Source: Bradyrhizobium sp. CB1650
GTDB taxonomy: Bacteria > Pseudomonadota > Alphaproteobacteria > Rhizobiales > Xanthobacteraceae
DNA: 64,000 bases
NCBI RefSeq assembly: GCF_029761915.1
Contig: NZ_CP121695.1
Location: 8,213,501-8,277,500 of the forward strand
Direction of reading: 5' to 3'
Position 1 is the stretch's first letter. Every line of letters begins with the position of its first letter. Shown here in pieces: positions 44,355 to 54,511 of the stretch. The notes beneath the pieces were generated by a model that saw nothing but the letters and a program-made list of their open reading frames with translations, did no database searches and was not told the DNA's origin. Position numbers and translations under genes: made by a program.

Positions 44355-46118
44355 CTAGAGGCCGAGGTCGCGCTTTCGACCAAAGGCCCATTCGATACCG
44401 CCGCCGTCCTTCACGACGCCGGTGACGTGCTGGCCGAGCCTCTTTTCGAGTTCGCGCGACCAGGGCACGAAGTGGAAGCCGAGCCCGTTGTCGATCATGG
44501 CGAAGCGCCCCGAGCTGAGCGTCAGCCGGCGGCGGTACGTGCCCGCCACATGCTCCCCGGACGCGGCGTTCACATGAGGCAGGCTGGCGTCGGCCGAGAC
44601 TTTTGAAGCCACCTCGTCCAGCTCGCGTCGGCGCAACGTGTTCAGGAGGTCGCGCTGCAGAATGACGCGCTGTCCCTGCCGTCGCGCCAGACCTTCCTGA
44701 ACCAGATGCTCGGCGCGCGCTTTCATGGCGTTGCGGGTCTCTCGGCCGAATCCACCCATGGCGAGCGGCATGGGATCTCGGTCAACCAGCCTGTGGTCGA
44801 GCCAGGTGGCCCCTCTCGCAGTGATCTGCTCACGGAGATCGAGATCGGAACGGGTTGCGAGCACTACGGTTGGCCGCGGATCGCCGGCTTGGCCGAAGCG
44901 TCGGACTTCAACGATGCCGCCCGCTGGCGGAGCATATTCGAAAGCCTCTAGGCCTCGAAAGCGCACGTGGTGCGCCCGTCCATCTGTCCCATCGATCAGG
45001 GCATAGGCCTCGCCGGTCAGTTCGTCATGCAGTCCTCGGTCGACCAGTCGTCCGATGATCTGAGATGTCGGCTGTTCACCCTCGATGACGTAGTCGGAAA
45101 TGCCGCGAGCTTCTCCGCGCTCGGTGAAGGCGCGGTGCATGGTCTTGATGATGTCGCCGCGCATGCCGAGGTCGCGCAAGCTGCGCTCGGCTTCCAGCCC
45201 GACCATCCACTCCCCGGGCGCGGCGGATGCAGCAAGGCCCATCTTCTCCAGGTGCTGAAGGCGACCGATCATCAAACGCCTGATCTCGGGATCGGACTTG
45301 CCGGGATTCTCTGGGCGAAGATCGATATAGCCGGTCTCATCTGCCGCCAGCCGGATCTCCCGATCGAGCCGCGTCCATCGCTCCGCTGTAACTTCCCTCT
45401 CCAGCGAATTGCGGATCTCGTGCTCTGGTTTTGGTCCCAGTTCGATGGCGACCAGTTCCTCGGCGCGTGAGCGCAGGCCCTGGCTGATGTAGTCGCGGGA
45501 GATCACGAGATCCGTCCCTTCCTCATCTATTCCCCGAACGAGAAGATGAACATGAGGGTTGTCGGTGTTCCAATGATCGACAGCCACCCAATCAAGCCGC
45601 GTGCCGAGATCGGTCTCCATCTGCTTGACGAGATCGCGGGTGAAGGCCTTGAGCTCGGTCATGTCGCCGGCGTCCTCTGGCGAGACGATGAACCGGAAAT
45701 GGTGGCGGTCGCCCTTGCAGCGTTCGGCGAAGGCGGTGTTATCAGCACGGTCGCTGCCAGCATCGAACATCTCGGCCCGCTGACCGCTTCGGGTCACGCC
45801 GTCGCGCTTCAGATATGAAAGGTGGGCGGTCAGTGGCGCTGACCGGAAGGCTCGCCCTTTGTGACGAACCACGCGCGCTTTCACCACGACGCGCCGCGTC
45901 GGGCTGAACAATCTGGCGCGGCTGAAGGCGAGGCGCCCCCGGCCAAACGTGGAGCGCCCATAGGCCGCCGAACGCCTGCCCGACCGTGTCTGACCCGAGG
46001 TGTGTCCTGCTTTCTTCGCCGCCCGCAGCACCTGGTTAATGAAGCTCTTGGGCTTCGGCGAGCGCGTGCTGCGGATGCGCCCAGGCCGAATTTGCAGATC
46101 GCTGTCGCCCACGCTCAC
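44355..46118 (-). CDS. Relaxase (VirD2-like, DUF3363 type; RlxS-like)
   Basis: The nuclease that nicks oriT and leads the transferred strand. The start is GTG 46118, because GGGAGG lies 7 nt before it and the product then begins MSVGDSDLQIRPGRIRS, the family start; the frame opens at TTG 46133. 587 residues: a basic N-terminus, a candidate catalytic tyrosine in AHLSYLKRDGVTR (about residue 108), the metal-binding motif NTDNPHVHLLVRG near residue 190, then a long DUF3363 region. The same relaxase class (RlxS) serves the Mesorhizobium symbiosis ICEs. An oriT-like region lies directly upstream. Confidence 0.9.
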   Translation of the reverse strand: MSVGDSDLQIRPGRIRSTRSPKPKSFINQVLRAAKKAGHTSGQTRSGRRSAAYGRSTFGRGRLAFSRARLFSPTRRVVVKARVVRHKGRAFRSAPLTAHLSYLKRDGVTRSGQRAEMFDAGSDRADNTAFAERCKGDRHHFRFIVSPEDAGDMTELKAFTRDLVKQMETDLGTRLDWVAVDHWNTDNPHVHLLVRGIDEEGTDLVISRDYISQGLRSRAEELVAIELGPKPEHEIRNSLEREVTAERWTRLDREIRLAADETGYIDLRPENPGKSDPEIRRLMIGRLQHLEKMGLAASAAPGEWMVGLEAERSLRDLGMRGDIIKTMHRAFTERGEARGISDYVIEGEQPTSQIIGRLVDRGLHDELTGEAYALIDGTDGRAHHVRFRGLEAFEYAPPAGGIVEVRRFGQAGDPRPTVVLATRSDLDLREQITARGATWLDHRLVDRDPMPLAMGGFGRETRNAMKARAEHLVQEGLARRQGQRVILQRDLLNTLRRRELDEVASKVSADASLPHVNAASGEHVAGTYRRRLTLSSGRFAMIDNGLGFHFVPWSRELEKRLGQHVTGVVKDGGGIEWAFGRKRDLGL

Positions 46119-46159
46119 GGCAAGGCCTCCCAACTATCGAAAACGTACACGGTGCCGAA

Positions 46160-46390
46160 AACGCCTTTGATTGCATTAATCAAAATGCAAGGCGCGGCAC
46201 GCGCCCCGACCGACCGGCACGCCAGAACACAAGCCATGTCAATGGCTTGCGGTTCGACCGGCGAGCCCCTTTTATCTCGCCGTCCTGCCGTCGTGGTCTC
46301 TCGGTCGCCGATTCCCGAAGAAGCCGCCGCGACTTGGCAGCCAACTCGCGACCCGAAGGGCCGAGACACCCGAAGGGTGGCTCGGTGAGG
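46160..46390. other. Candidate origin of transfer (oriT)
   Basis: The gap between the relaxase and the transglycosylase genes has three inverted repeats: TTTGATT-5 nt-AATCAAA (46166-46184), CAAGCCAT-4 nt-ATGGCTTG (46230-46249), and CCGAGACACCC-GAA-GGGTGGCTCGG (46361-46385, one mismatch). Between the second and third lies GTCCTGC (46282-46288), similar to the IncP/VirD2 nick core ATCCTGC. Location upstream of the relaxase gene and the repeat pattern fit oriT; nicking is not shown. Confidence 0.5.
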
Positions 46391-46463
46391 AGCGAAGCGA
46401 CGAGTAGAGCGCGGGCCGAAGGCATCGCCCATACGCCATCGGCTTGCGAACCCACATACTTAG

Positions 46464-47294
46464 TCATTGCGATACTCCCGAATCCGGTCGAGGGACGAAC
46501 ATGCCAATAGGCCGGGGGACCATGGGCGAAACATCGGGCGCCGAGTTTACGGTCGTGAGACCGCTCGACGGCATGAGCGGCAGCAACCGACCGCGCGCTT
46601 TCATGAGATCGGATCGCCTAACGAATAGCGTCGCAGCTGCTGATGACTGTCCACCGAACGTCCACCTCGGCGGCAGTTCGATGGCAAGCAGATTTGCAAG
46701 CTTTGCGACGTATGCTCGCGTCTCGTCTGGCAGAGAGCCGCCGGCGAGATGCTCTTCATAGCGAGATGGTCCCACGTTGTACGCGGCAAACGCGCCTGGC
46801 GATCCATATCGGTCGATCAGTTCTCGCAGATAGGCTGTGCCGGCAAGAATGTTGTCGTGCGGGTCGTAGGGGTCGTTCCCGAGATTGTAGCGCTCGCGAA
46901 GTTCGGCCCAAGTCGCCGGCATGATTTGCATCAGGCCCATTGCGCCTTTTGGCGATCTGGCGTGCACGTCACCAGCACTCTCGATGCTTTGGACTGATCG
47001 GATCCAATTCGGCGCAATCGCAAAGCGTTGTGAGGCTTCCTTGATGAAACCGGCAAATGAGTGAGCGGTCTGACTGATCGCCGGCTGGGCGGCTGATCCG
47101 CTCTGGGCCAAGGCAGCACTGTCGAACGAGGTCAGAAGAAGCATCAGGGGCACGACAGTACAAAGGCGCGTGCCTGACCGTCTCAAGCACGCGGTAGGGC
47201 TCGCACCAGCCTTGCAGACATCGATCGAGACGGAGGACGGATCCCGCAATCGATCGAACAGGGGCATGGCGACGAGAACACGCCGGATACGCAC
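46464..47294 (-). CDS. Lytic transglycosylase (VirB1-like)
   Basis: Periplasmic muramidase that opens peptidoglycan for the mating channel. About 276 residues from GTG 47294, with the GGGAGGA site inside the end of traF; GTG 47300 is an alternative. A signal-like hydrophobic stretch (VVPLMLLLTSFDSAALAQ) lies near residues 48-65. The SLT domain has the catalytic glutamate in SVQSIESAGD, then GAMGLMQIMPATW and AAYNVGPSRY. Typical gene between traF and the relaxase. Confidence 0.88.
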   Translation of the reverse strand: MRIRRVLVAMPLFDRLRDPSSVSIDVCKAGASPTACLRRSGTRLCTVVPLMLLLTSFDSAALAQSGSAAQPAISQTAHSFAGFIKEASQRFAIAPNWIRSVQSIESAGDVHARSPKGAMGLMQIMPATWAELRERYNLGNDPYDPHDNILAGTAYLRELIDRYGSPGAFAAYNVGPSRYEEHLAGGSLPDETRAYVAKLANLLAIELPPRWTFGGQSSAAATLFVRRSDLMKARGRLLPLMPSSGLTTVNSAPDVSPMVPRPIGMFVPRPDSGVSQ

Positions 47295-47296
47295 GA

Positions 47297-47809
47297 TCAC
47301 TCCTCCCGCGTCCACACCGGCATCGCATGGCCGATCACGGCAGACGCCGGAAGAAATCCAAAGTACCGGCCGTCAAGAGAGTCGTCCGACTGCCAGTTCA
47401 TCAGAAACAGCTCGCCGTCGCCGACAACGCGGCAGCCCTGCCATTTCGGCAACGGCCGGCCGCGTCCGTCGCGATCCCGCGCTTCCCCCATTTCAATGTC
47501 ATCGACCGAGATCGTGGGCCCGCTTCTGCAGACCGTCTGCCCGGGCAGCGCAAGGACCCGCTTGAGCATGGGGACGCCGATGGGCAGATAGCCGTTAAGG
47601 TCAAGGAACGTCGCGAGCGGCTCCGGCGGCTGCACGGCGACCAGCTCGGTAATGTGGAAGCGTTCAGCCGCTCGCAGGCGATAGAGACCGATCGGCACGC
47701 TTGCCGATGCATTCCAGATGTAGAGCGGCAGCGGCTCCAGGACGAGTGTCACGACGAGCGCGGCAGTGGCACCAAACGTTACCGCCAGCGTCTTCAAGCG
47801 TCCCATCAT
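47297..47809 (-). CDS. traF: Conjugative transfer signal peptidase TraF
   Basis: S26-family serine protease; in RP4, TraF matures and cyclises the TrbC pilin. From ATG 47809 it has 170 residues, an N-terminal membrane anchor (about 8-28), the catalytic serine in ASVPIGLYRL and the lysine in LKRVLALPGQTV. It overlaps the DUF2840 stop and the start of the transglycosylase gene. Intact. Confidence 0.9.
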   Translation of the reverse strand: MMGRLKTLAVTFGATAALVVTLVLEPLPLYIWNASASVPIGLYRLRAAERFHITELVAVQPPEPLATFLDLNGYLPIGVPMLKRVLALPGQTVCRSGPTISVDDIEMGEARDRDGRGRPLPKWQGCRVVGDGELFLMNWQSDDSLDGRYFGFLPASAVIGHAMPVWTREE

Positions 47810-48270
47810 CGCATTACCCTCTGCCGGTGAAGCCAAGCCTGGTGGCGCGCTTTCGTATACGGGCGCGGGTTTTCGTTGACGGACAAACGGTTATGAACGT
47901 GATGCCAATGATCAGGCGCGACATCAGCGGGATCGATGCCGAGTGCCTCAACGGCATCGGCCATCTGCAGCACGCGCTCCACCTTCGGCCAGCCGGACAG
48001 ACGCAGCAAGATCTCTCCGCCGGGTGTCACATAAGGGACGGTGGAGCAGCGCTGTCCCGGCGCGACCGCGCGCAGGATATCGATGCGCGATATGATCGTG
48101 CCAAAGTCGTTGGAGGTCCAACGGACGAAAGCAAAGATGCTGCCAGGCGCGAATGACAGGACGCGCCGGTGGCGATCAAGCTTCAGATCCTTGACGATGC
48201 GACCGAACCGGATACGGTTTTCGATACGCTTCTCGACCCACAGCACCTCCACTTCGGTGAGATCGCTCAT
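47806..48270 (-). CDS. DUF2840 protein
   Basis: 154 residues of the DUF2840 family, constantly found between the partition/replication genes and traF in these ICE modules; function unknown. The N-terminal half carries FGRIVKDLKLDRHRRVLSF and the C-terminal half DHWHHVHNRLSVNE. Translationally coupled to traF. Confidence 0.85.
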   Translation of the reverse strand: MSDLTEVEVLWVEKRIENRIRFGRIVKDLKLDRHRRVLSFAPGSIFAFVRWTSNDFGTIISRIDILRAVAPGQRCSTVPYVTPGGEILLRLSGWPKVERVLQMADAVEALGIDPADVAPDHWHHVHNRLSVNENPRPYTKARHQAWLHRQRVMR

Positions 48271-48483
48271 GCTGCCGCTCCCGGAGAGGTCAATGGGGAG
48301 TCGTAAGTATTAGCGGTGAAGCACCTGTGCGGCTTCTGCCGATGAGGATTGGCGGCCCGCGGTTGCCAGTCGCCTGCGATGCGGTTTCCAGCTTGGTCCG
48401 TTAGAAGAAATCCGAAGGATTTCTGGTTAGTAAAGTTAGAGCGGCTGGAAAGCGCGCAGAAACAAGCTCTTAAGCTCGATTCC

Positions 48484-48548
48484 GGTCCCCGATAGCACGA
48501 GGATCGGGTCCCCGATAGCACGAGGGTTATGGTCCCCGATAGCACGAG
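48484..48548. repeat. Three 18-bp iterons beside repA
   Basis: Three identical copies of GGTCCCCGATAGCACGAG at 48484-48501, 48507-48524 and 48531-48548, with 23- and 24-bp periods, all in the same orientation, just past the repA stop. Spacing near two helical turns is typical of initiator-binding iterons of a replication origin. Confidence 0.9.
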
Positions 48549-48553
48549 CTGAT

Positions 48554-49435
48554 TCACAGGTTGTCCTCCGAATTTGGAATGAGACCGCGCCGGCGCAAGC
48601 GTGCCGTTAAGGGATCGACGGGCGTAGGCGCGAAGTTCAGCCGCTCGCTGCCGTTCGGATCGCGTGTGAGCACGAGCTGATATCCAGGCAATGTCTGGCG
48701 CTGGACGATCTGACGGACGTCGTAAGCAAAGTGCTTGAGCGGCGAGAGGATGCCGGACTTGGCATGGAGGTGCACAAGGTCAAAACTCCAGCCGCCGTCC
48801 TGGCGTCCACCGTGCTTGCGCATGAGCCGATAGAGCCAGCGCTCAAGTCCGACCGTCAGATCGAAATAAGCGCGGTCGATGGTCAGCACGAGCGCGTCGT
48901 CGATGACGCCGGCATAGAACCAATCAGGCAGGATCAATTCGAGTCCAAATGGGCGACCATCTGCGTCGGCCGTTTCCTTCCACTCGTTGATCCAGGAGAA
49001 GCGATGCCGTCGCCGCTCTGTCGGCTGGCGGATCGATGTCAGCACGGTCGTTGACTGAAGTCTGTCAAGACCAGCCTTCAGCCGATTATAGTCGCGCGCG
49101 CTGGTGCCGCGGCCGAAAAACGTCAGAATCTCGTATGGCGTTGCAGCCATCAAGCGCGAGGTCTTCAAGCCCGCGTCTCGCGCTTCGACGATCTGCGACG
49201 CAGCCCAGATCAGGACATCTGCATCCCAGATGGTCGCCATGCCGTGTTCCGGCACGGCTTCGACACGAATAGCGATCGCGCCGGCACGAAAATCGATCGG
49301 CACCACACGTTTCGTCTTGGTGAGCGAAAAGAAGGGATAGGCCATCAGATCCTGCGCGTCGCGCGGCGCGAGATCGCCGGGCAACGCCCGGAAGAGCTCA
49401 AGCTGCTCGCGCTCGGAACGGTGCTTGCGCCACAT
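48554..49435 (-). CDS. repA: Replication initiator protein RepA
   Basis: Initiator of the RPA/RepA family found in alphaproteobacterial ICEs and plasmids. From ATG 49435 (MWRKHRSEREQLELF) it has 293 residues. Conserved stretches include LMAYPFFSLTKTKRVVPIDF, ATPYEILTFFGRGTSARDYN, and a C-terminal winged-helix-like part (YRLMRKHGGRQDGGWSFDL, SGILSPLKHFAYDVRQIV). Three iterons directly follow its 3' end. No parA gene is present between repA and DUF2840, where one is often found. Confidence 0.9.
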   Translation of the reverse strand: MWRKHRSEREQLELFRALPGDLAPRDAQDLMAYPFFSLTKTKRVVPIDFRAGAIAIRVEAVPEHGMATIWDADVLIWAASQIVEARDAGLKTSRLMAATPYEILTFFGRGTSARDYNRLKAGLDRLQSTTVLTSIRQPTERRRHRFSWINEWKETADADGRPFGLELILPDWFYAGVIDDALVLTIDRAYFDLTVGLERWLYRLMRKHGGRQDGGWSFDLVHLHAKSGILSPLKHFAYDVRQIVQRQTLPGYQLVLTRDPNGSERLNFAPTPVDPLTARLRRRGLIPNSEDNL

Positions 49436-49457
49436 GGTCACTGCTCTCACGCGGCAA

Positions 49458-49739
49458 TCAGCGACGTTCCTGGCCCGCATAGGGGCGCAGCGCGGGATGC
49501 TTCTTGGCCGGCAGCACCGTTCCCTTGCCGGGGTCGGAGGTCGACGTCTTAGCGCCGCGGTCGGCCCACGCTTTCAGGTCATCGACGGCGTAGACGACAC
49601 GTCCGCCAATCTTCCGATAGGTGGGTCCGGTGCCGTACGTGCGATGCTTCTCGAGCGTACGACCGGACAGGCCAAGATATCGCGCCGCCTCCGGCGTACG
49701 CAGGAACCGCGGGGGAAGACCGGCCATCGGATCGGGCAT
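49458..49739 (-). CDS. AlpA/excisionase-like helix-turn-helix protein
   Basis: A 93-residue protein with a MerR/AlpA-type helix-turn-helix (RFLRTPEAARYLGLSGRTLE, then YRKIGGRVVYAVDDLKAW) and a basic, disordered C-terminus. Similar proteins sit before repA in ICE modules; related excisionases such as RdfS act as recombination directionality factors. The start at ATG 49739 fits the conserved MPDPMAGLPPRFL beginning. Confidence 0.85.
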   Translation of the reverse strand: MPDPMAGLPPRFLRTPEAARYLGLSGRTLEKHRTYGTGPTYRKIGGRVVYAVDDLKAWADRGAKTSTSDPGKGTVLPAKKHPALRPYAGQERR

Positions 49740-49871
49740 TTGAGAACTCCAGGAGGACAGCGCACGACGCTTGGCTAGGCCGGCGTGTGTGCGGTCATCA
49801 TGGAGAAGCAGCATCTCGGAGGGGATGCCGAATGTTGGGGGTACGATTTTCGGCACCCCTCGGGGACTGCG

Positions 49872-50330
49872 CTACTCGTCCTTGCGTCCGGGCCGCAGGA
49901 GTTTGCGGTAACCGCCTCGCATCAAGGCGAGGCCGCGTCGCACCAAGCGGACCGTTCGATTGCGCAGATCATGCGTCTTCCACGCACGATCGGGAATCCG
50001 TTTTTTGCCGAAGAGCGCCTCGGCGATCGTGCGATAGCTATTGCCGGCGCTGTGCGCATCGAGCGCACGGATCGCGGCGCTCAGGCGTTCGCGCCGTTGT
50101 TGAGAGACTTTGTGAAATGCAGGACCTGAGGCGCGTCCATTCATCGCGCGCCACAGCCGGCGCGCTGTATGCGCACGCGCGTCGAAATTGGCATCAAGCG
50201 GCAATTCGGCTGCGTATGACGCGCCGAGCACCGGCGGGTCCTTGGACCAGACACGGTGATTTACCGCACCAATGCGTAGCACGGCATGCCAGCCGTCGGC
50301 GGCGCGGCACACCTGGCCAGCTTTAAGGTC
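49872..50330 (-). CDS. DUF2285 half of a split regulator (FseA-like C-terminal part)
   Basis: DUF2285 helix-turn-helix-variant domain: RAADGWHAVLRIGAVNHRVW, ARRLWRAMNGRASGPAFH, SYRTIAEALFGKKRIPDRAW and the end RRGLALMRGGYRKLLRP. It is in the +1 frame relative to the DUF6499 frame upstream and has no convincing start or ribosome binding site of its own. The junction is GCT TGA C: skipping one base at the upstream TGA (50331-50329) reads straight into GAC CTT AAA of this frame. Fused, the product would be about 255 residues. This is the layout of FseA of Mesorhizobium ICEs, made by +1 frameshifting. A plain frameshift mutation is the alternative. Confidence 0.8.
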   Translation of the reverse strand, partial: DLKAGQVCRAADGWHAVLRIGAVNHRVWSKDPPVLGASYAAELPLDANFDARAHTARRLWRAMNGRASGPAFHKVSQQRRERLSAAIRALDAHSAGNSYRTIAEALFGKKRIPDRAWKTHDLRNRTVRLVRRGLALMRGGYRKLLRPGRKDE

Positions 50331-50640
50331 AAGCGGTGGCTGAGACGGCGCTCCGCCGGCGTGACCCTGCGATCTTGACAGGAACGACCGCCGCTAGAAC
50401 CTCAGGCGCCCAAAAGATCGTCTGCTTGTCGAAGGACCTCTGCGGGTCATGGGCGAAAGCAGAGGCCCACCTCCTCCTGAATTCCGCGGTCACTTCGCCA
50501 TCTGGGCTGCTGGCGACCATCGCCTCATATTCGCGTCGGTAGTCCGCGTTGCGGCGTAGACATTCCCAGGCGATGTCGGTGATTTCGGCGTCTTGTAGGC
50601 TCTTGTAGGATTCCGGCGACCGCCAGTCGAATTCAGGCAT
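50329..50640 (-). CDS. DUF6499 half of a split regulator (FseA-like N-terminal part)
   Basis: 103 residues from ATG 50640. The DUF6499 domain is complete: MPEFDWRSPESYKSLQDAEI, TDIAWECLRRNADYRREYEA, FRRRW and TIFWAPEVLAAVVPV. It ends at TGA 50331-50329, exactly where the DUF2285 frame takes over. In many genomes the two domains are one continuous protein; in Mesorhizobium ICEs the pair msi172/msi171 is joined by programmed frameshifting to form the excision and transfer activator FseA. Confidence 0.82.
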   Translation of the reverse strand: MPEFDWRSPESYKSLQDAEITDIAWECLRRNADYRREYEAMVASSPDGEVTAEFRRRWASAFAHDPQRSFDKQTIFWAPEVLAAVVPVKIAGSRRRSAVSATA

Positions 50641-50804: not shown

Positions 50805-51076
50805 CTATCTTGAGCCGCACCCGCGTAAGAGCCGTCCCTGCTCGGTTACCCATTTAGCGCGTGCAAGATGACTTTGATATGCGCGCCGCGCTCGATCCGG
50901 CTCTCGCTCTGGGTCCATGTGCAAGACCACTTGCGCCACTTCGCGCCAGCCCGCCCCTCCCCCTCCGCTTGCAGAAGGCGCATGTACGTGACGACATGCT
51001 GTTCGTCATGGGCGGTCAGCACCGGCTCGTTCGGCGCGGCATCTTCGACGTGAGGATCTAGTGGCTGCTTCGACAT
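50805..51076 (-). pseudogene. Small DUF2285-like protein, frameshifted (QseM-like)
   Basis: From ATG 51076 the frame reads MSKQPLDPHVEDAAPNEPVL and DEQHVVTYMRLLQAEGEG, then leaves the family pattern. After a one-base slip in a G-rich tract (GAGGGGGAGGGGCGGG, near 50970) the expected continuation appears: GWREVAQVVLHMDPERE, RARRAYQSHLARAKWVTEQG, ending at 50805. Intact relatives of about 85 residues include the QseM type, which antagonises FseA. A true mutation or a base-calling error in the G-run are both possible. Confidence 0.65.
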
Positions 51077-51310
51077 CAAAAGCTACAATATGCGCGGCAT
51101 TGAAAATCAAATCGTGAGGCGCCAACCTCGGCGCCTCGAACTGTTCCCTGCTGTAGCATATTGCATGCCACCCGCTCGGGCGAGCATTCAAGAAGCCGTA
51201 TTCCGCACAACATTTTCGGCAATCAAAGCTCCGTCGGAGACCTCAAAACACCCAACTCCGCGTATTATAACACGTAGCGCCAAAATACGCGATTGCTTCC
51301 TATCCTGCGG

Positions 51311-51536
51311 ATGGACATTCGCAAGGTCTTTGGGCAAACGCGCGTCGATTTCGACTGGCCCTTGGCTTGAGCCAAGAGGCCGTCGCGGAACGCATGGGCG
51401 TCGACCGGGCCTTCGTGAGCAGCATGGAGCGTGGGCTCCAAAACGCAACACTCCTCACAATCTGGCAGATCGCCCAAGCGCTAGGGTCAGGCCGGCAGAT
51501 CTGCTCGAGGAGAAGGCGTCCAAAGTTCGGTCCTGA
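51311..51536 (+). pseudogene. XRE-family HTH regulator, two frameshifts
   Basis: Joining three frames gives MDIRKVFG, ANARRFRLALGLSQEAVAER, MGVDRAFVSSMERGLQNATL, LTIWQIAQALG, VRPADLLEEKASKVRS, a standard small XRE repressor of about 75 residues. Each break needs one extra G in a G-run (TTTGGG near 51330; CTAGGG near 51485). Divergent from the DUF2285-like gene. Regulators of this kind often control ICE transfer genes. Confidence 0.7.
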
Positions 51537-52797: not shown

Positions 52798-52918
52798 TGC
52801 TCTTAAGAGCAGATTATATGCTGTTAAAGGCTCTCAAAAGCAAATCATTGCAAAATGCCCTACAATTTATGTATGCTCTTAAGAGCACAATACATAACTT
52901 ATATGGCTTTTAAGAGCA
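52798..52918 (+). promoter_or_regulatory. Operator array of the hipBA operon
   Basis: Perfect palindrome TGCTCTTAAGAGCA at 52798-52811 and 52874-52887, plus degenerate copies GGCTCTCAAAAGCA (52829-52842) and GGCTTTTAAGAGCA (52905-52918), the last touching the hipB ATG. The copies form two pairs with the same 31-bp step. The AT-rich DNA between them probably holds the promoter. The expected binder is the HipB-like antitoxin. Confidence 0.75.
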
Positions 52919-53259
52919 TGGTAGCAACCAACAAACTTCAAAAGGCGCCACCTTACCCCGTGTCGCGGGCTCTCACGCAATTGGGGGCGGATCTTCGTAC
53001 CGCACGCATCCGCCGTAACATGACTATGGAGGATGCGGCCAGCAGAATCGGAACGGGCCTACGCGCTGTTATGGACGCCGAAAAGGGCAAAGCATCGACA
53101 GGTATCGTGGTCTATGCCGGGCTGCTGTGGCTCTACGATATGCTCCAGCCCCTTGAAGAACTCGCTGACCCCTCAAAGGACAAGGAAGGGATTGCCCTGC
53201 AAGCGACGCGGGAACGCAAGCGGGCACGCAAATCCGGGGGGCTCGACAATGACTTCTAA
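52918..53259 (+). CDS. hipB: HipB-like XRE antitoxin
   Basis: 113-residue helix-turn-helix protein (ALTQLGADLRTARIRRNMTM, then DAASRIGTGLRAVMDAEKGK) followed by a basic C-terminal tail. It would bind and neutralise the HipA kinase and repress its own promoter. I start at ATG 52918 (MVATNKLQK); the frame is open upstream through the operators, so those codons are probably not translated. It overlaps hipA by 11 bp. Confidence 0.82.
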   Translation: MVATNKLQKAPPYPVSRALTQLGADLRTARIRRNMTMEDAASRIGTGLRAVMDAEKGKASTGIVVYAGLLWLYDMLQPLEELADPSKDKEGIALQATRERKRARKSGGLDNDF

Positions 53260-54511
53260 AGGCAACACCGAATGCTTCGTCTACATCACGCTGCCCGGTC
53301 AGACCGAAGCGATAACCGCTGGTCGATTCCAGCTCGCCAAGGATCGCCGTGGCAATGCATTGGGCCGCTTCGTCTACGGCAAGTCGTACCTCTCAAACGG
53401 AGATGCGGTCGCGATTGATCCTGTCGAACTTAAATTATCGGGCGAGACTTACGAAACGGGCCGGCTGAATGGCGTCTTTGGCGCGTTACGCGATGCAGGC
53501 CCGGACTATTGGGGTCGCCGTGTCATCGAGAAGCATGCCGGGGTTCCTCAGCTTGGCGAACTTGATTACCTGCTAAATTCAGCCGACGACCGCGCAGGGG
53601 CGCTTGGTTTTGGACTCGGACAACAACCTCCGGCACCACGTCGCAAATTCAACAAGACGCTCGAACTCGCAAAGCTTCAGGAAATCGCCGAAGCCTTGAT
53701 GCGTGAGGAAGATGTAAAAACCGAGGAAGCCGCACAGGTTCAAGACTTGATGCTCCTGGGCACCTCGATGGGCGGAGCCCGTCCGAAAGCTGTCGTCGAG
53801 GACGACGACGGACTCTGGATCGCAAAATTCAACCGCCCGGACGACCGCTGGAACAACACACGCGTCGAGCGCGCGATGATCGAGTTGGCCAAGGCATGCG
53901 GTCTTCGCGTCGTTGAGAGTCGGGTTGTCAGCGTCGGGGCGAAGGACGTTCTCCTCGTCAAGCGCTTCGATCGCACGAAGACGGACAAGGGATACATGCG
54001 TTCGCGGATGATCAGCGGATTAACTGTGCTGCGAGCGGATGAAGCCGTCGAGATGCGCGATCGCTGGTCTTATGTATTGATGGCGGAGGAGATGCGCCGG
54101 GTCACGGAGGAGCCGGAAAAGGACGCCAAAGAACTTTTCCGACGCATGACGTTCAATGCACTGATTTCCAACCTCGACGATCATCCTCGCAACCACGCGC
54201 TGGTAGCGAAGGAGCGGACTTGGCAGCTTTCACCAGCCTATGACCTGACACCCTCCCCCGTTATTTCACTGGAACATCGTGATCTAGCGCTGGAGGTTGG
54301 CGATCAGGGGCGATTTGCAAATGCTAAGAACGTGTTGTCGCAACATACCCGCTTTCTGCTGGATGCAGAAGAGGCCAAAGCGATTGTCGCGAGCATGACC
54401 GAACAAGTGCGCGCCTCGTGGTACGATGTCGTTCGCGGTCAAGGGGTCAGCGAGAAGGACGCCGAAACGATCAGAGGCGCCTTTGTATACCCGGGCTTTC
54501 TGACGGAATAG
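53249..54511 (+). CDS. hipA: HipA-type serine/threonine kinase toxin
   Basis: 420-residue kinase; E. coli HipA phosphorylates glutamyl-tRNA synthetase and causes dormancy and persistence. Visible parts: the N-terminal HipA_N region (about 10-110), a glycine-rich loop with an autophosphorylation-type serine (GTSMGGARPKAVV, about 170-180), the catalytic loop NLDDHPRNH with D310/D311, and the metal-binding YDLTPSP about 20 residues later. All key residues are present. ATG 53249 lies inside the hipB end; the larger frame from 53033 overlaps hipB and is rejected. Next to the ICE module it may act in element maintenance. Confidence 0.9.
   Translation: MTSKGNTECFVYITLPGQTEAITAGRFQLAKDRRGNALGRFVYGKSYLSNGDAVAIDPVELKLSGETYETGRLNGVFGALRDAGPDYWGRRVIEKHAGVPQLGELDYLLNSADDRAGALGFGLGQQPPAPRRKFNKTLELAKLQEIAEALMREEDVKTEEAAQVQDLMLLGTSMGGARPKAVVEDDDGLWIAKFNRPDDRWNNTRVERAMIELAKACGLRVVESRVVSVGAKDVLLVKRFDRTKTDKGYMRSRMISGLTVLRADEAVEMRDRWSYVLMAEEMRRVTEEPEKDAKELFRRMTFNALISNLDDHPRNHALVAKERTWQLSPAYDLTPSPVISLEHRDLALEVGDQGRFANAKNVLSQHTRFLLDAEEAKAIVASMTEQVRASWYDVVRGQGVSEKDAETIRGAFVYPGFLTE

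What the first reader, a model, noticed from the sequence alone, without database searches (positions are those of the whole stretch)
49872..50640. Split DUF6499/DUF2285 regulator with a GCT-TGA-C junction: likely programmed +1 frameshift
The DUF6499 frame ends in TGA precisely where the DUF2285 frame begins in +1, with no start or ribosome binding site for the second half. The junction resembles the RF2-type slip context (codon, UGA, C). In Mesorhizobium ICEs, FseA is made by +1 frameshifting of the same two domains and switches on excision and transfer. Here the split lies next to alpA-repA rather than beside a traI quorum-sensing gene.
Basis: partly seen in the sequence, partly recalled or inferred. 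Interest (0 to 1): 0.75.

Follow-up and report, generated by a model that had tools for sequence, protein, structure and literature searches.

The report
Broken frameshift-controlled excision switch (fseA)
A gene that in its relatives switches on excision of a mobile element, and is read there through a built-in ribosome slip, carries length changes here that bypass the usual slip site and break the frame further on, so it is most likely a decayed copy rather than a new kind of programmed slip.

Summary
The split gene is real and belongs to the FseA family (DUF6499 + DUF2285), but GCT-TGA-C is very unlikely to be a programmed slip site. The two frames do not abut: they overlap by about 60 nt. 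In 67 of 73 compared loci the DUF6499 frame closes about 117 nt earlier, two codons after an invariant TTT (TGC-TTT-CGC-NCA-TGA), the family's +1 site. The window copy is one base shorter just before that site, so its first frame passes it already in the DUF2285 frame; a net two-base shortfall in the linker then breaks the frame again. GCTTGAC is the coding sequence (CTT GAC) of the conserved LLDL motif. Best reading: a recently decayed excision-control module on a Bradyrhizobium ICE. A local sequencing error is the main rival; a relocated slip site is unlikely. By-product: a tandem AGG-AGG pair precedes the family's slip site in 55 of 61 distinct junctions although AGG is 1.7% of arginine codons in the DUF2285 part, a candidate stimulator.

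The parts
50329..50640 (-). fseA-like, first frame: DUF6499 plus the linker, 103 aa, ends at TGA 50331-50329
   Evidence: PF20109 E 6e-18; frame runs past the family's slip site
49872..50393 (-). fseA-like, second (+1) frame with DUF2285; open from 50393, no convincing start
   Evidence: PF10074 E 4.9e-33; overlap with first frame about 60 nt
50446..50461 (-). Sequence of the family's +1 slip site (TGC TTT CGC CCA TGA C in relatives); letters kept here but entered in another frame, hence bypassed
   Evidence: 67 of 73 compared loci end the first frame two codons after TTT; window one base shorter at about 50465
50355..50370 (-). Linker stretch where the window is a net two bases shorter than relatives, throwing the frame out again
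   Evidence: alignments (placed at 50362; exact placement uncertain in this variable stretch)
50328..50334 (-).
   Evidence: same heptamer in 17 of 73 loci, in frame as CTT GAC; no relative's first frame ends here
49827..49854 (-). FseA box, GCCGAA-N16-TTCGGC, upstream of rdfS, perfect in the window
   Evidence: perfect in 20 of 29 aligned relatives, near-perfect in the other 9; architecture as in PMC10359603 section 18; the bare pattern is not rare in the genome
   Evidence: PDB 8dgl RdfS E 3e-11; HTH_17; no window-only indel
50805..51079 (-). qseM-like antiactivator gene, split over two frames here
   Evidence: intact homologue matches QseM 7uqt E 7.5e-17; split in the window, in one frame in 61 of 79 named loci, split in 0
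51311..51536 (+). XRE (HTH_3) regulator gene, possibly qseC-like, split over frames here
   Evidence: HTH_3; split in the window, one frame in 53 of 79 named loci, split in 0
44355..49480 (-). repA, DUF2840, traF-like peptidase, SLT transglycosylase, rlxS: transfer/replication genes downstream of rdfS without window-only frame-breaking indels
   Evidence: families (RlxS model below its cut-off: 598 of 850 bits)

Best explanation
This is an fseA-family gene in the excision-control module of an R7A-type ICE in a Bradyrhizobium genome (order: XRE regulator, qseM-like, fseA, FseA box, rdfS, repA, DUF2840, traF, transglycosylase, rlxS). In relatives a +1 ribosomal slip, most likely at TTT-C (inferred from the invariant site and the two frames), joins DUF6499 to DUF2285. 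Here a one-base shortfall just before that site bypasses the programmed slip, and a net two-base shortfall in the linker breaks the frame again about 100 nt on. The qseM-like and XRE genes beside it are frame-broken too, while flanking genes are not. The module most likely decayed recently, leaving an element with its transfer genes but without its own switch for rdfS; it is silent or depends on an activator in trans. Shown: frames, length differences, conservation in relatives, intact box and rdfS frame. Inferred: loss of function, its recency, the exact slip codon.
For: Window-only shortfalls at 50465 and 50362 in fseA, 50954 in qseM-like, 51333 in XRE, a further one near 51487 in XRE seen; none in rlxS, SLT, traF, DUF2840, repA, rdfS, DUF736. 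qseM-like and XRE split in the window but in 0 of 79 named loci. Frame-broken fseA copies also occur elsewhere: 2 of 73 have a stop between same-frame halves (L053, L060), 2 have an early nonsense codon (L034, L058), and 5 of 75 named loci have a linker frame loss (L114, the same record as L053, L122, L135, L139, L141). A second module 17 kb away in the same genome is damaged. Terminal-branch omega 0.33, rank 5 of 47.
Against: The protein halves still look constrained (window omega 0.169 against a median of 0.132 in the DUF2285 part; 0.122 against 0.119 in DUF6499), so loss must be recent or not real. The window-only changes inside the three genes are all losses, two of them in runs of G, which is also how a local sequencing error would look. 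No reads were available.
Confidence: 0.62

Rival explanations
1. Local sequencing or assembly error: the true DNA carries the family's ordinary fseA with its slip site, and intact qseM-like and XRE genes.
For: Window-only changes inside the three genes are losses of one or two bases, two in runs of G; constraint is largely kept; the DUF2285 half (P0003) is a cluster of one sequence with no second isolate.
Against: The changes cluster in about 1.1 kb while seven flanking genes and the visible trb/traG rows (output cut in part) show none; the second module of the genome is damaged by larger changes.
Confidence: 0.25
2. A new, non-canonical +1 shift somewhere in the 60-nt overlap still makes full-length FseA.
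For: The two frames overlap and remain +1 to each other; both halves look constrained.
Against: No conserved or recognisably slippery sequence; the place is the variable linker; the antiactivator and XRE genes are broken as well.
Confidence: 0.05
3. RF2-type programmed slip exactly at GCT-TGA-C.
For: UGA followed by C at the end of the first frame.
Against: Heptamer is ordinary coding in relatives (17 of 73); no relative ends its frame there; GCU cannot re-pair well as CUU and no close Shine-Dalgarno-like stretch (by eye; RF2 rules recalled).
Confidence: 0.03
4. The two pieces act separately, for example the DUF2285 piece from GTG 50312 as a QseM-like antiactivator of the other fseA copies.
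For: QseM is a lone DUF2285 protein that binds DUF6499 (PMC10359603, abstract and passages); other fseA copies with the ordinary site exist in the genome (L003, L004).
Against: No ribosome-binding site seen before GTG 50312 (by eye); no evidence of selection on either piece alone.
Confidence: 0.05

Closest known systems
FseA (msi172-msi171) of ICEMlSym-R7A and its homologues (PMC10359603, passages and section 18)
   Same: Same two domains, +1 relation, conserved slip site beside the WGL motif in relatives, FseA box of two hexamers 16 bp apart upstream of rdfS, qseM-like gene nearby
   Different: Slip site bypassed in this copy and frame broken again in the linker; lies beside rdfS with no luxI-type gene near (single match at 9.185 Mb)
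Single-frame fseA homologues (L027 = Bradyrhizobium sp. CCBAU 51765; P0065 of B. shewense)
   Same: The DUF6499 frame passes the slip site without a shift
   Different: They stay open to the end of DUF2285; the window breaks again in the linker
rihF1a/rihF1b of Azorhizobium caulinodans ICE-Ac (PMC9601964, passages)
   Same: msi171/msi172 homologues as two ORFs promoting ICE transfer
   Different: There each ORF is said to have its own start and stop; here the second has no convincing start
Decayed quorum-sensing/antiactivation loci on Mesorhizobium ICEs (PMC8627217, passages)
   Same: Pseudogenised transfer regulators beside conserved transfer genes
   Different: There traR, traI, qseC and qseM; here fseA itself as well

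Membership tests
FseA family | DUF6499 followed by DUF2285 | tested here: met
   PF20109 E 6e-18 and PF10074 E 4.9e-33
FseA family | FseA box upstream of an rdfS gene | tested here: met
   binding not tested
FseA family | One polypeptide, in a single frame or through the conserved +1 site | tested here: not met
   Slip site bypassed, frame broken in the linker; so it is filed as a damaged member by descent
FseA family | Activates rdfS | not testable with these tools
   needs reporter assay
RF2-type programmed +1 site | CUU-UGA-C with a Shine-Dalgarno-like stretch 3 nt upstream (recalled) | tested here: not met
   GCU instead of CUU; none seen upstream (by eye)
RF2-type programmed +1 site | Junction conserved among homologues | tested here: not met
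   0 of 73 compared loci end the first frame there
QseM family (neighbour gene) | Lone short DUF2285-type protein in one frame | tested here: not met
   Intact homologue matches 7uqt, window copy split over two frames

The most novel reading that the evidence does not exclude
Having lost the family's frameshift brake, this copy acquired a second, non-canonical +1 shift zone in the linker that restores low-level FseA production: a programmed frameshift that moved by about 100 nt within one gene.
Probability: 0.05. Interest if true: 0.6.

Novelty: new member of a known kind. Interest (0 to 1): 0.27.

Why it matters
The +1 slip is one of several brakes on a potent excision activator: FseA overexpression is reported to be bacteriostatic in M. 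japonicum R7A (PMC10359603, discussion passage). L027 shows that a one-base loss before the slip site can remove that brake and leave one open frame; in the window copy the gene is broken again further on, and its antiactivator and XRE neighbours are broken too. If reads confirm it, this is a natural case of an ICE losing its excision switch while keeping transfer genes. The comparison also gives a testable candidate stimulator of the real slip site, a conserved AGG-AGG pair.

Tried and rejected
Rejected: RF2-type slip at GCT-TGA-C (coding heptamer, no slippery codon, no conservation). Held unlikely: the two halves as separately started genes (no convincing start for the second). Rejected: sequencing error spread over the whole region, because flanking genes examined are clean; a local error stays open. 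A guessed pattern search found nothing and carries no weight. The FseA-box pattern alone says little genome-wide (5 forward matches, 7 for its control); only its place and conservation count. L003, L004 and L005 showed no perfect hexamer repeat with 15-16 spacing downstream of fseA, and L002 none in the stretch scanned, so activation in trans is neither shown nor excluded. Ramsay 2015 (PNAS) and two related papers are not held, so the published slip codon was not compared. No structure prediction was run.

Full report
Observation. On the minus strand the window holds a DUF6499 frame (ATG 50640 to TGA 50331-50329, 103 aa) followed in +1 by a DUF2285 frame ending at 49872. The DUF2285 frame is open from 50393, after a TAG, so the frames overlap by about 60 nt; the TGA marks only the end of the first frame, not the point of change. 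The window lies in a 9.43-Mb single-contig genome whose same-genus relatives include a contig identical in length to one named Bradyrhizobium sp. CCBAU 51765, so the genus is Bradyrhizobium by inference.

What relatives show. I compared 73 other loci: 69 from the same-genus search (195 genomes drawn, 147 with a match; 29 loci came with the search, 40 more were fetched; many listed matches, mostly weaker, were not fetched) and 4 paralogues of the own genome (L002-L005). DUF2285 is in +1 to DUF6499 in 70, in the same frame after a stop in 2 (L053, L060) and in one open frame in 1 (L027). In 67 of 73 the first frame ends two codons after TTT; the six others are L005, L017, L027, L034, L058 and L060. 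Among 66 of these (L002 left out of the base counts), TTT is in 66, TGG in 65, TGC in 64, CGC in 64, TGA in 65 and TAA in 1, TGA-C in 57. In the closest relatives the DUF2285 frame is open for about 206 codons, against 173 here. Of 79 named loci 75 have both halves recognisable: 54 show the same TTT site (31 already in the first set by exact sequence), 19 are arranged otherwise (14 of them still in +1), 2 are in one frame; 4 lacked a recognisable first half. The conserved +1 site beside the WGL motif is what PMC10359603 describes for FseA (passages); that paper counts about 61% of 4709 homologues in two frames.

What differs here. Aligned to relatives the window is one base shorter in the run of G after the TGG codon, at about 50465, just before the site. 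Its first frame therefore reads GCT TTC GCC CAT GAC, already the DUF2285 frame, and the slip site is bypassed. At about 50362, in the poorly conserved linker, it is a net two bases shorter, which throws the frame out again until the TGA.

The neighbourhood. Upstream of it lies a perfect GCCGAA-N16-TTCGGC repeat (49827-49854), perfect in 20 of 29 aligned relatives and near-perfect in 9, matching the published FseA box (PMC10359603 section 18). The bare pattern is not rare in the genome (5 forward matches, control 7). Upstream of fseA is a gene whose intact homologue matches QseM (7uqt, E 7.5e-17; Pfam DUF2285 only below its cut-off), and beyond it a divergent XRE gene (HTH_3). Both are frame-broken here: the qseM-like gene is in one frame in 61 of 79 named loci, partial in 10, not found in 8, split in 0; the XRE gene is in one frame in 53, partial in 3, not found in 23, split in 0. 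Two of the four close relatives (G068, G140) have only a distant XRE there (39-43% identity).

Where the damage lies. In a 7.9-kb alignment with four relatives, window-only losses of 12 bases or less are at 48313 (3), 48346 (3), 49824 (1) and 50791 (1), all outside my gene limits, and at 50362 (2) and 50465 (1) in fseA, 50954 (1) in qseM-like and 51333 (1) in XRE; window-only gains are at 51211 (3), 51544 (1, just past the XRE stop at 51536), 51637 (1) and 51734 (8). None falls in rlxS, SLT, traF, DUF2840, repA, rdfS or DUF736. The relatives have private indels too, in the region labelled XRE (G140, G068) and between genes. A second XRE shortfall near 51487 shows and in the split, but not. The trb and traG rows that are visible match in one frame (the output was cut in the middle). 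A second copy of the module 17 kb on in the same genome is damaged as well. No luxI-type gene is near; the single match is at 9.185 Mb.

How recent. In the DUF2285 part the window's mean omega against 68 relatives is 0.169 (others: median 0.132, range 0.105-0.194); in DUF6499 it is 0.122 (others: median 0.119, range 0.075-0.253). Its terminal branch carries 18 synonymous and 17 nonsynonymous changes, omega 0.33, rank 5 of the 47 tips with 15 or more changes (parsimony on a FastTree tree). Constraint was lost recently or not at all. This speaks against old decay, but does not separate recent decay from sequencing error.

Mechanism. Published for the family (PMC10359603 and PMC11963761, passages): TraR drives fseA, a low-frequency +1 slip makes FseA, FseA dimers bind the box and activate rdfS and transfer genes, QseM binds DUF6499 and blocks FseA. 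Inferred here: the shortfall before the slip site alone would leave the halves in one frame without the brake, as in L027; the linker change abolishes full-length FseA. The order of the two events cannot be told. With qseM-like and XRE broken too, the element most likely cannot induce its own excision. Other fseA copies with the ordinary site (L003, L004) might act in trans, but no matching box was found beside them.

By-product. In 61 distinct junctions with the family's site, the two codons that precede the R/K-W pair are AGG AGG in 55, although AGG makes up 1.7% of 1316 arginine codons in the DUF2285 part of the same genes. The paper notes a ribosome-binding-site-like UGGGGG at this place (discussion passage); the AGG-AGG pair, itself Shine-Dalgarno-like and ending 15 nt before TTT, was not mentioned in what I read. 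It could stimulate the slip by pausing or rRNA pairing, or be shared ancestry alone. The distant copies L003 and L004 lack it. The window keeps it at 50473-50478.

Literature. Searches for FseA with frameshift and Mesorhizobium, DUF2285 or DUF6499, msi171/172, Bradyrhizobium with ICE and FseA and frameshift with ICE, excision and pseudogene listed, in the rows shown, no paper whose title or start of abstract describes a frame-broken fseA in Bradyrhizobium. I saw passages of seven papers (PMC10359603, PMC8627217, PMC5009743, PMC5882170, PMC9601964, PMC9973854, PMC11963761) and one full section of the first; none was read whole. Decay of transfer regulators on Mesorhizobium ICEs is reported (PMC8627217, passages).

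Noticed in passing
window 50473-50478 (-) and the same place in L006-L086: Tandem AGG-AGG arginine codons just before the R/K-W pair and the family's slip site in 55 of 61 distinct junctions, although AGG is 1.7% of 1316 arginine codons in the DUF2285 part: a candidate stimulator of the +1 slip.
   Followed up: partly
L043 (own genome, directly after the window), about 3.4-4.4 kb and beyond: A second fseA/qseM-like/XRE module with an rdfS copy (89% identical) about 17 kb away, also frame-damaged, by larger changes.
   Followed up: partly
L017 and L136: In these fseA copies the first frame runs on to +237 instead of ending at +192 while DUF2285 stays in +1; in L017 the usual TGA is changed.
   Followed up: no
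L027 (same contig as L102, Bradyrhizobium sp. CCBAU 51765): A single-frame fseA in which one base fewer before the slip site leaves DUF6499 and DUF2285 in one open frame: a natural loss of the frameshift brake.
   Followed up: partly
window 52855-54511 (+): HipA-like gene (PF07804) preceded by a small HTH-like ORF that overlaps it, possibly a hipBA pair just beyond the DUF736 gene.
   Followed up: no
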